A DNA stretch of 64,000 nucleotides from a bacterium EF100-94H03 bin56 (lineage in GTDB: Bacteria; Pseudomonadota; Alphaproteobacteria; SP197): assembly GCA_002238685.1 (NCBI GenBank), contig MPMV01000013.1, forward strand, positions 1-64,000, given 5' to 3'. Positions 10,424 to 15,248 of the stretch are shown one piece after another (within the stretch, counting starts at the first letter, position 1; each line of letters begins with the position of its first letter). The notes under the pieces were generated by a model. It searched no databases, was not told the origin of the DNA, and saw only the letters and a program-made list of their open reading frames with translations. The position numbers and the translations under genes are program-made.

Positions 10424-11470
10424 TCACGCGACCGCCCAACGCTGCAGCATCGTATCGAACCGACCGCTCGCCTCCGGTGGAGCCTCTCCCTTGGAGAGTC
10501 TTTCGAGCTGGCCGGAAAGCCACGTTCGTGCCTTCCTTTCCGTCTCGAGGGACCGCGAAAGGATGTCGACCGTCTTGGGTTCCGCCGTCGTTTTCGCACC
10601 CTCGAGGGTGGCGATGAGGTTTTCCGTGAGTTCGAGATCGTGGCGGATTGCCGCCAGCGGATCGGAGCCGACCTTCACGCGATGGGGCAACCGGATGTCC
10701 GGCATGAAGACCGGCCGCGGCTCGGCCCCCAGAAGGATGATGTGCTGCGCGACCCGGAACGCGCAAGTCATCTCGTCGACGGAGTGTCCGATCCTGACTT
10801 CGCCGAGCGCCTTCTCGTTGCAGTGCTCCAGCAGAAATCCCTGCAGGAAGAACTGCTCGATGGCCAGGAAGTGGTTACACAGGACCGTGTTCAGCACGGC
10901 AATCAGGGCCTCGTCCCCAGGCCGTTCCGTATCGGCCTCGCCGGCCAGGAATCTCTCGTCGGTGTCCTCCAGATACTCGAGAAAGTCCTCCAGCGACCTG
11001 CCCTCGGCATCCGAAGCCGGCTCGCCGGGATCGGCCGGCGCGAGGTTTCCGGCCGCTTCGGCCCGATCGTGCAACTCGGCGACGAAGGCGGCACCTTCCT
11101 CGATCAGACGGTCGAGCCCCGGCGAAGTCTCGAGTGCGCTCCGCGCCCGCCGGAGCGCCGCCAGATTCCGCACCGCCAGACTCAAGTCCGCCTGCCATAC
11201 CGCCTTCTCCTTCACCTGAAAGTCGGGCTCGCCGCGGTCGGGACCCGTGGCGGTGCCGTCCGGGTCGAGCGGCACGCCCTGGCGCTGCATCTCGCGGATG
11301 AGCTGCATGAGCCGCCGGGTCTCAGCGAGATTGTCGGCGTAGGCAAGCTCCGCGGCCGGCCTCTCTGCATGAAACCTCAGACAAAGCGATTGCACGAAAC
11401 CCCTGTTGACCAGGGTGAGCTTGTCGCCAAGGGCCAGGTTGAGCTCGGCGTCGAGTCGTTCACCATGCAT
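10424..11470 (-). CDS. tandem bacterioferritin-like protein with degenerate metal sites
   Basis: The 348-aa protein has no named family that I can be sure of. Residues 188-325 follow the four-helix pattern of bacterioferritin: LNTVLCNHFLAIEQFF, then HSVDEMTCAFRVAQHIILLG, then HDLELTENLIATLEGA, then a helix ending ERKARTWLSGQLERL. In my alignment the ferroxidase ligands are mostly lost (Glu18 becomes His200, His54 becomes Cys236, His130 becomes Ala314), while Glu233 and the haem-position Met234 remain. Residues 8-138 repeat the same helix pattern even more degenerately, without ligands. An acidic linker (about 142-187) joins the halves. The role is unknown. The start ATG lies at 11470. Confidence 0.6.
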   Translation of the reverse strand: MHGERLDAELNLALGDKLTLVNRGFVQSLCLRFHAERPAAELAYADNLAETRRLMQLIREMQRQGVPLDPDGTATGPDRGEPDFQVKEKAVWQADLSLAVRNLAALRRARSALETSPGLDRLIEEGAAFVAELHDRAEAAGNLAPADPGEPASDAEGRSLEDFLEYLEDTDERFLAGEADTERPGDEALIAVLNTVLCNHFLAIEQFFLQGFLLEHCNEKALGEVRIGHSVDEMTCAFRVAQHIILLGAEPRPVFMPDIRLPHRVKVGSDPLAAIRHDLELTENLIATLEGAKTTAEPKTVDILSRSLETERKARTWLSGQLERLSKGEAPPEASGRFDTMLQRWAVA

Positions 11471-14138: not shown

Positions 14139-15083
14139 TCAGGCTGGCGCGGGCTCGCGCTCCAGATGGCGGCTCAGCGCCGCGATGTGCGACACCGTAA
14201 GCCCGCAGCAGCCGCCCAGGACCTGCACGCCCTCGTCCCGCCATGCCCGGCAGTGCGTGACAAAGGGCGCATCCGCAATGACGTTCTCGAGAGACAGCGT
14301 CTCCTGGCCGGCCTCGTCGCGGTCGAGCGAATCGGGGTAGGCCAGCAGCGGCCCGGACCAGTGCCGCCTCAGCATCGCCAGGGCGTCCGGGATCACCTCT
14401 GGCAGGCTGTGCATGATGCCCATGACGTCGGCGCCTTCCGCCACGATCGGCGCCAGTACATCGGCCAGCGGGACCCTGTCTTTCGTGTAGGTGCGCAGCA
14501 CGCCGTCTTCCGCCCTGACGGCCGAAATGCCGACCCACACGGGCAGGTCGTTGGCCCTGGCGGCGCGCATCACCGCCGGAGTGTACGCGGCATCGCCCAT
14601 CATCTCCGCCATGATGAAGTCGCATCCCGCAGCCTTGTGGATCGCCGCCATGTCGGTGCAGTCGGCCTCGAACTTCTCCACGTTGCTGAGTTGCGGCCAC
14701 GCGGAGTCAGACGTCGGGCGCGTATGGGAAATCGAGCCCGCCACCAAGACCGGACCGTCGGGATGCGGCGTGGCGTCGCGCGCCTCGACCGCGAGCTCGA
14801 CCGCGAGACGGTTGAGAGGTTCGAACCTGTCGCCGAACCCCAGGGGATCCAGCACCTCGCGGGTTGTCGCGAAGGTGTTGGCGGTGACCACGCGCGCGCC
14901 TGCACGAATGTAGTCGGCGTGGATCTGGCGAAGCATGTCGGGATGCGACGCGGTGGCGAGCGCGCACCAAGCCCCGCCCTCGTGCATCGGCGCGCCTCGG
15001 CGCTGCAGTTCGGTGCCTGTGGCGCCGTCGATCACGATCACCGCGCCGTCGCATATTTCCTGGATCACGGCAGCGTACGTCAT
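14139..15083 (-). CDS. homocysteine S-methyltransferase family protein
   Basis: The 314-aa (beta/alpha)8 protein begins with the family pattern IVIDGATGTELQRRG and has ANTFATTREVL near residue 69 and VAGSISHTRPT near 114. The paired zinc cysteines GGCCG are at 292-293. The first zinc cysteine, which normally follows a Gly-x-Asn, seems replaced by His225 in GIMHSLPEV. Family enzymes move a methyl from S-methylmethionine, betaine or a related donor to homocysteine. The donor here is unknown, and the His-for-Cys change may mark a functional subfamily. The ATG at 15083 gives the usual family length. Confidence 0.82.
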   Translation of the reverse strand: MTYAAVIQEICDGAVIVIDGATGTELQRRGAPMHEGGAWCALATASHPDMLRQIHADYIRAGARVVTANTFATTREVLDPLGFGDRFEPLNRLAVELAVEARDATPHPDGPVLVAGSISHTRPTSDSAWPQLSNVEKFEADCTDMAAIHKAAGCDFIMAEMMGDAAYTPAVMRAARANDLPVWVGISAVRAEDGVLRTYTKDRVPLADVLAPIVAEGADVMGIMHSLPEVIPDALAMLRRHWSGPLLAYPDSLDRDEAGQETLSLENVIADAPFVTHCRAWRDEGVQVLGGCCGLTVSHIAALSRHLEREPAPA

Positions 15084-15248
15084 GCGCTTTCCTCTCTTGA
15101 CGCTGCGAGTATGACGGCAGCCGGACCTCCGCGGCAAACCCGCATGCCTGTCGGTGGAAACGCCGGATCAGGAACCATGCCGCTCCGGATTTCCCATCCA
15201 CCGGGATCCAGGACGAAGCCGGGCACCACGATCGCCGGCGCGACGATT

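What the first reader, a model, noticed from the sequence alone, without database searches (positions are those of the whole stretch)
10424..11470. Two fused bacterioferritin-like domains without ferroxidase ligands
The C-terminal half follows the bacterioferritin helix pattern, but E18, H54 and H130 align with His, Cys and Ala. The N-terminal half seems to be an older copy with no ligands, joined by an acidic linker. A duplicated, metal-free ferritin fold would be unusual and possibly undescribed.
Basis: inference. Interest (0 to 1): 0.55.

Follow-up and report, generated by a model that had tools for sequence, protein, structure and literature searches.

The report
Fused bacterioferritin pair without iron-oxidising sites
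A bacterial gene encodes two bacterioferritin-like domains in one chain that have lost the iron-oxidising site; close relatives also carry a second, separate double-bacterioferritin gene, so this bacterial family seems to have turned an iron-storage protein to another use.

Summary
The minus-strand ORF 10424-11470 (348 aa) is a real, conserved gene. Residues 185-327 are bacterioferritin-like (PF00210 E 6e-8; PDB bacterioferritins E 2e-7). Residues 1-145 have no ordinary sequence hit. Profile-profile alignment places them on bacterioferritin in register, above 321 control segments and 400 shuffles; the N-half model is low-confidence, although Foldseek's best matches are bacterioferritins. Full-length relatives were found only in the window's own GTDB family (4 intact of 16 genomes).

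New here: 13 of those 16 genomes also hold a second, distinct double bacterioferritin ("tandem-B"). It keeps Met52 in both halves (12/12, 10/10) and has lost E18 in all 22. In 4 of the 13 no canonical bacterioferritin was found.

Best reading: a derived, ferroxidase-less covalent bacterioferritin "dimer", working like the haem-binding Bfr2 subunit of hetero-bacterioferritins, possibly on its own. Haem binding, assembly and "metal-free" status are untested. New variant of a known kind.

The parts
10424..11470 (-). Whole ORF, 348 aa: two bacterioferritin-like domains in one chain
   Evidence: relatives; dN/dS
11036..11470 (-). N half (residues 1-145), bacterioferritin-like, four predicted helices at 5-33, 37-63, 83-112, 117-139
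   Evidence: hhalign to bacterioferritin in register, P 4.8e-5, above 321 controls and 400 shuffles; AF2 model mean pLDDT 57.6; Foldseek best matches bacterioferritins, E 2.6e-3, TM about 0.4, rmsd 19-20 A
10922..11035 (-). Acidic linker, residues 146-183, with a predicted helix at 160-174
   Evidence: sequence; model (low confidence)
10487..10921 (-). C half (residues 184-328), bacterioferritin-like
   Evidence: PF00210 E 5.7e-8; PDB bacterioferritins E 1.8e-7; hhalign P 9.6e-20
10427..10486 (-). C-terminal tail (residues 329-348) with a short predicted helix in the place of bacterioferritin helix E, without the NYLQ motif
10769..10771 (-). M234, the position of the haem ligand Met52; kept in 4 of 4
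10871..10873 (-). H200 at the position of ferroxidase ligand E18
10772..10774 (-). E233, ferroxidase ligand E51 kept (3 of 4; Q in G008)
10763..10765 (-). C236 at the position of ferroxidase ligand H54
10538..10540 (-). E311, ferroxidase ligand E127 kept (4 of 4)
10529..10531 (-). A314 at the position of ferroxidase ligand H130
11318..11323 (-). E50 (E51 position, kept 4 of 4) and T51 (Met52 position) in helix B of the N half

Best explanation
It is a single-chain, two-domain bacterioferritin-type protein with the ferroxidase centre lost in both halves, the C half keeping the axial haem ligand Met52. Shown by sequence: the architecture (less surely for the N half), the ligand losses, the kept Met52, conservation under purifying selection, and restriction to one bacterial family in the genomes searched. 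Inferred: the two bundles pack against each other as the two subunits of a bacterioferritin dimer do (or two chains pair through their C halves), and the protein binds haem or a partner without oxidising iron. It would then work like the haem-binding, ferroxidase-less Bfr2 subunit of hetero-bacterioferritins. Because double bacterioferritins persist in genomes in which no canonical bacterioferritin was found, it probably does not need one to act.
For: C half. N half: in-register profile match, better than 321 controls and 400 shuffles, and bacterioferritins as the 36 best Foldseek matches of its model. Met52 kept in 4 of 4 C halves. A second double bacterioferritin in 13 of 16 genomes of the family keeps Met52 in 12 of 12 N and 10 of 10 C halves and has E18 in 0 of 22, so loss of the ferroxidase centre with Met52 kept has recurred or been inherited in fused proteins. 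Precedent: in Magnetospirillum, Bfr2 lacks ferroxidase residues, contributes to haem binding and forms nanocages alone (PMC6529640, passages). Independence of canonical bacterioferritin: none over the cut-off in G001, G008, G009, G013, all with tandem-B, and G008 with the window type too. dN/dS below 1.
Against: The N half has Thr at the Met52 position in 4 of 4, so a bis-Met haem within one chain is not expected in this protein. The N half is not found by hmmscan or by hmmsearch of its profile against PDB. Both AF2 models are low-confidence; the N-half model superposes on bacterioferritins with TM about 0.4 and rmsd 19-20 A, and VIA-align gives a good fit only for the first helical hairpin (residues 3-72, Z 9.2), with non-ferritin helical proteins ranked as high. 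None of the neighbours examined is a haem or iron-storage gene. The gene is absent or only a remnant in 12 of 16 genomes of the family.
Confidence: 0.5

Rival explanations
1. A structural or partner-binding scaffold that binds neither haem nor metal; the ferritin fold is reused, perhaps beside the homocysteine S-methyltransferase that precedes it in two relatives.
For: In helix B of the N half residues 42-55 are all invariant in the four proteins, as expected of a binding surface. In G011 and G010 the gene follows a homocysteine S-methyltransferase on the same strand, 8 bp overlapping and about 30 bp apart. Core positions of the N half carry K17, E50, R53, which could form salt bridges in place of the metal site (inference).
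Against: Met52 position kept in 4 of 4 C halves. In G008 the neighbours differ (desaturase, halogenase-like, NAD(P)-binding and FAD proteins), and the methyltransferase is missing beside the window gene.
Confidence: 0.25
2. The C half holds a new metal site made of H200, E233, C236 and E311 in place of the di-iron centre.
For: These four residues take positions E18, E51, H54 and E127 in the window, G010 and G011 proteins.
Against: In G008 the same positions are S, Q, A, E, so it is not a feature of the family.
Confidence: 0.1
3. A dispensable gene on its way out: relaxed remnant of a bacterioferritin duplicate.
For: Only a remnant is left in G009 (last 39 residues), and a second place of the own genome holds the first 132 residues with a stop; dN/dS as high as 0.46 in the N half.
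Against: Intact in 4 genomes down to 44% identity; dN/dS below 1 in all pairs; a block of invariant residues in the N half.
Confidence: 0.1
4. The N half is an unrelated helical domain that happens to align with bacterioferritin.
For: No ferritin hit by hmmscan or hmmsearch; low-confidence model with rmsd 19-20 A to its Foldseek matches; middling Z is common for helical bundles.
Against: All four N halves score above 321 controls, in the same register, and their alignment above 400 shuffles; predicted helix boundaries fit bacterioferritin's as I recall them.
Confidence: 0.12

Closest known systems
Bacterioferritin (TIGR00754)
   Same: C half aligns over nearly the whole subunit; Met52, E51 and E127 kept; N half aligns in register over helices A-C
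   Different: Two domains in one chain; ferroxidase centre lost; far below the family's cut-off; no NYLQ tail
Haem-binding, ferroxidase-less subunit Bfr2 of hetero-bacterioferritins (Magnetospirillum PMC6529640; Shewanella PMC12120770; passages read)
   Same: Met52 kept while ferroxidase residues are changed
   Different: Bfr2 is a separate single-domain chain, encoded beside Bfr1 in those species; here two domains are fused, neither has a ferroxidase centre, and no bfr1-type gene is adjacent
Tandem-B proteins found here (L020, L056, L057 and others)
   Same: Single chain of two ferroxidase-less bacterioferritin-like halves, same bacterial family
   Different: Met52 in both halves, both halves recognised by bacterioferritin models, no C-terminal extension; a shared fusion with the window gene is neither shown nor rejected
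Human ferritin L chain (recalled, apart from a reference title seen)
   Same: A ferritin subunit whose ferroxidase site is replaced, by a salt bridge
   Different: Single-domain, eukaryotic ferritin, co-assembles with H chains

Membership tests
Pfam Ferritin PF00210 | Score over gathering cut-off (24.5 bits) | tested here: met
   Whole protein 33.2 bits and C half alone 34.6 bits; the N half alone has no match
Bacterioferritin TIGR00754 | Score over curated cut-off (125.55 bits) | tested here: not met
   36.4 bits
Bacterioferritin | Six ferroxidase ligands E18, E51, H54, E94, E127, H130 | tested here: not met
   In the window protein the C half keeps 2 of 6, the N half 1 of 6
Bacterioferritin | Axial haem ligand Met52 | tested here: met
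   C half 4 of 4; but N half 0 of 4, Thr
Bacterioferritin | Conserved NYLQ pore residues (in helix E, as I recall) | tested here: not met
   Tail reads SGRFDTMLQRWAVA; NYLQ named in a passage of PMC12120770
Bacterioferritin | 24-subunit cage, haem b, iron core | not testable with these tools
   needs purified protein
Hetero-bacterioferritin Bfr2 subunit | Met52 kept with ferroxidase residues changed | tested here: met
   C half, 4 of 4
Hetero-bacterioferritin Bfr2 subunit | A ferroxidase-active partner encoded beside it | tested here: not met
   Neighbours are aldolase, luciferase-like monooxygenase, 3-hydroxyacyl-CoA dehydrogenase, and in relatives a methyltransferase; the own canonical bfr is on contig C102. 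Scattered gene pairs also exist (PMC12120770), so this does not exclude partnership
Four-helix ferritin fold, N half | Ferritin topology over the whole domain | tested here: inconclusive
   Foldseek best matches are bacterioferritins, but TM about 0.4 and rmsd 19-20 A; VIA-align only for residues 3-72; mean pLDDT 57.6

The most novel reading that the evidence does not exclude
This bacterial family has made two kinds of single-chain double bacterioferritin, both stripped of the iron-oxidising centre and both keeping haem-ligand methionines. They serve as covalent bacterioferritin dimers for haem (storage, buffering or electron transfer) rather than for iron storage, and in some members they are the only bacterioferritin-type proteins.
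Probability: 0.3. Interest if true: 0.62.

Novelty: new variant of a known kind. Interest (0 to 1): 0.43.

Why it matters
Ferritins are known as iron-oxidising cages. A natural single-chain double bacterioferritin without ferroxidase sites would separate the haem function of bacterioferritin, whose role I recall as still debated, from iron storage. It gives a ready-made covalent dimer in which haem binding can be tested by simple expression. Two such families in one lineage, and their presence where no canonical bacterioferritin was found, make the question testable by comparison.

Tried and rejected
Structure of the whole protein from 3 sequences: mean pLDDT 42.9, pTM 0.35; none of its Foldseek matches is below E 0.001, though bacterioferritins lead the list. 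Not used as evidence of packing.

VIA-align on the N half: designed helical proteins, STAT and MukF rank level with the bacterioferritin hairpin, so the full bundle is not confirmed.

hmmsearch of the N-half profile against PDB: 5 weak hits, best E 0.29, none a ferritin. PHROGs: nothing at E below 0.1. Viral contigs: none. Plasmid records: 15, matching only the C half, named bacterioferritin where a gene is listed.

N-half profile in 398 phylum genomes: only the own genome matches well; two short weak matches (G428, G650; E 0.006 and 0.008) were not followed.

A common origin of this fusion and tandem-B: winC+tbC held together p-AU 0.27, winN+tbN p-AU 0.41, winN+winC together with support 75/14. 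Neither shown nor rejected; long branches.

Tandem-B neighbourhood as a clue: a glutamyl/glutaminyl-tRNA synthetase directly upstream was found in 3 of the 9 loci compared (own genome, G009, G011) and not in the other 6, so it is no functional clue.

One weak match of tandem-B outside the family in an open frame over parts of both halves (G197, query residues 58-214, E 3.8e-4) was not read.

One search looked for files that were not there.

Full report
Observation. The ORF is 10424-11470 on the minus strand, 348 aa. Pfam Ferritin covers residues 190-326 (E 5.7e-8, over its cut-off), and PDB bacterioferritins match residues 184-327 (best E 1.8e-7). Residues 1-180 have no ferritin hit. NCBIfam bacterioferritin scores 36.4 bits against a cut-off of 125.55.

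It is a real gene. Intact relatives are in G010 (83%), G011 (82%) and G008 (44%). Third codon positions vary most in this frame. dN/dS is 0.21 to 0.46 between the three close genes and below 1 against G008, in both halves (the synonymous distances to G008 are near saturation). Against G008 the N half is 51% and the C half 35% identical. In all, 4 of 16 genomes of the GTDB family have a full-length gene; the order search returned the same 16. G009 keeps only the last 39 residues, at the same place beside the aldolase. With the four-row profile, 87 of 385 class genomes matched at 1e-10, but outside the own genome none further towards the N terminus than profile position 155. The 29 of these read as loci (L023-L051) are bacterioferritins. 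The N-half profile found no convincing relative in 398 phylum genomes beyond the own.

The N half. Profile-profile comparison with 37 bacterioferritin rows aligns residues 8-115 to bacterioferritin 9-110, P 4.8e-5. As single sequences the four N halves scored 24.8 to 32.2. Of 325 ORF segments used as controls, 4 are pieces of the proteins studied here, found afterwards by BLAST, and are left out; the best of the other 321 scored 20.6. Of 400 column shuffles of the alignment, 200 of them keeping blocks of seven, none exceeded 22.8, against 35.5 observed. Reversed profiles gave nothing. The N and C halves of this protein also align with each other, P 1.8e-4. The AF2 model of the N half has four helices at 5-33, 37-63, 83-112 and 117-139, close to bacterioferritin's as I recall them, with mean pLDDT 57.6. 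Its 36 best Foldseek matches are all bacterioferritins, E 2.6e-3 and up, but TM is about 0.4 and rmsd 19-20 A. VIA-align supports only the first hairpin. Ordinary profile searches do not find the relation. I take the N half as bacterioferritin-derived with about 85% confidence.

Ligands (four proteins: window, G010, G011, G008). C half: E18 is H, H, H, S; E51 is E, E, E, Q; H54 is C, C, C, A; E94 is T, T, T, L; E127 kept 4 of 4; H130 is A, A, Q, T; Met52 kept 4 of 4. N half: E18 is K, K, K, N; E51 kept 4 of 4; H54 is R; E94 is A or M; Met52 is T; E127 and H130 are lost, with the alignment there uncertain. Of 36 bacterioferritins in the same alignment, E18, E51 and E94 are kept in 36, H54 in 35, E127 in 32, H130 in 35 and Met52 in 35. 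So the ferroxidase centre is gone from both halves while the haem-ligand position of the C half is held. Whether haem is bound was not testable.

A second double bacterioferritin. While collecting bacterioferritins I found L020, a 303-aa protein of G009 with two bacterioferritin-like halves. This "tandem-B" type is in 13 of 16 genomes of the family: 11 full-span, one seen only to the contig end in its N half (G010) and one split over two frames (G002). The match rows of G004, G006, G007 and G014 count one stop each; the frames of G004, G006 and G014 are open over both halves, that of G007 is broken by a TAG. In the own genome it is at C30:2563-3453. Met52 is kept in 12 of 12 N and 10 of 10 C halves aligned; E18, E51 and E94 are kept in 0 of 22 and H54 in 1 of 22 (the broken G007 copy and incomplete C halves were left out). 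In 372 class and 378 phylum genomes (at most 6 candidates scored in each, E cut-offs 1e-3 and 1e-8) no match outside the family covered most of both halves in one open frame; one weaker partial match was not read (G197). The 7 places outside the family that span both halves with stops and that I read are adjacent single-domain bfr genes, as are 3 further neighbouring pairs. In 9 of these 10 pairs one gene keeps all six ferroxidase ligands but not Met52 and the other keeps Met52 with changed ferroxidase residues; in the tenth (L106) the Met52 gene keeps all six ligands. These resemble the bfr1-bfr2 pairs of hetero-bacterioferritins (PMC6529640 and PMC12120770, passages).

Co-occurrence. Canonical bacterioferritin over the NCBIfam cut-off is in 9 of 16 genomes. 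Of the 13 with tandem-B, 4 have none: G001, G008, G009 and G013, with stated completeness of 99, 90, 97 and 91%. In G008, G009 and G013 the only PF00210 matches are the double bacterioferritins. These are drafts, so single absences are weak, but together they speak against a need for canonical bacterioferritin. The three genomes without tandem-B also lack canonical bacterioferritin, so the two do not exclude each other.

Origins. In a tree of 69 domains (half of the ordinary bacterioferritins used) each of the four half-types is one well-supported group, and all sit on long branches; their relation to each other is open.

Surroundings. In G011 the order is 3-hydroxyacyl-CoA dehydrogenase, homocysteine S-methyltransferase, this gene (8 bp overlap), class II aldolase, luciferase-like monooxygenase. 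The window keeps that order without the methyltransferase. Contig C42 of the own genome holds the methyltransferase with the first 132 codons of this gene and scraps of the aldolase. In G008 the neighbours are different. No function follows from this.

Mechanism. Shown: the fold family of the C half, the likely relation of the N half, the loss of the ferroxidase centre, the kept Met52 position, and purifying selection. Inferred: the protein does not oxidise iron; it acts as a covalent bacterioferritin-type dimer that binds haem through M234, perhaps between two chains because the N half has Thr there; and it can act without canonical bacterioferritin. The nearest worked example is Magnetospirillum Bfr2, which lacks ferroxidase residues, contributes to haem binding and forms cages (PMC6529640, passages). 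The main rival is a scaffold that binds neither haem nor metal.

Novelty. Literature searches listed no description of a natural fused bacterioferritin; I judged by the titles and abstract starts shown, in an open-access library, and the subscription literature was not searched. I call it a new variant of a known kind.

Noticed in passing
G000:C30:2563-3453 (L056, L078), and L020, L057, L058, L082-L091: A second, distinct double bacterioferritin without ferroxidase ligands, Met52 kept in both halves, in 13 of 16 genomes of the family.
   Followed up: yes
L004 4149-4514 (G000:C42): A remnant of the first 132 codons of the window gene, with a stop, after a homocysteine S-methyltransferase and joined to scraps of the aldolase that lies beside the intact gene in the window: a rearranged partial copy.
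   Followed up: partly
window 14139-15137: A second homocysteine S-methyltransferase-like ORF (36% identical to the one beside this gene in G011) about 2.7 kb from the ferritin-like gene.
   Followed up: no
L019 (G004:C4): A bacterioferritin that clusters in the tree with the Met52-less subunits of gene pairs, within the same bacterial family; it is probably the one of 36 rows with Leu at position 52.
   Followed up: no
L090/L108 (G002) and L059 (G007): Tandem-B copies broken by a frame change (G002) and a TAG stop (G007); assembly error or decay not decided.
   Followed up: no
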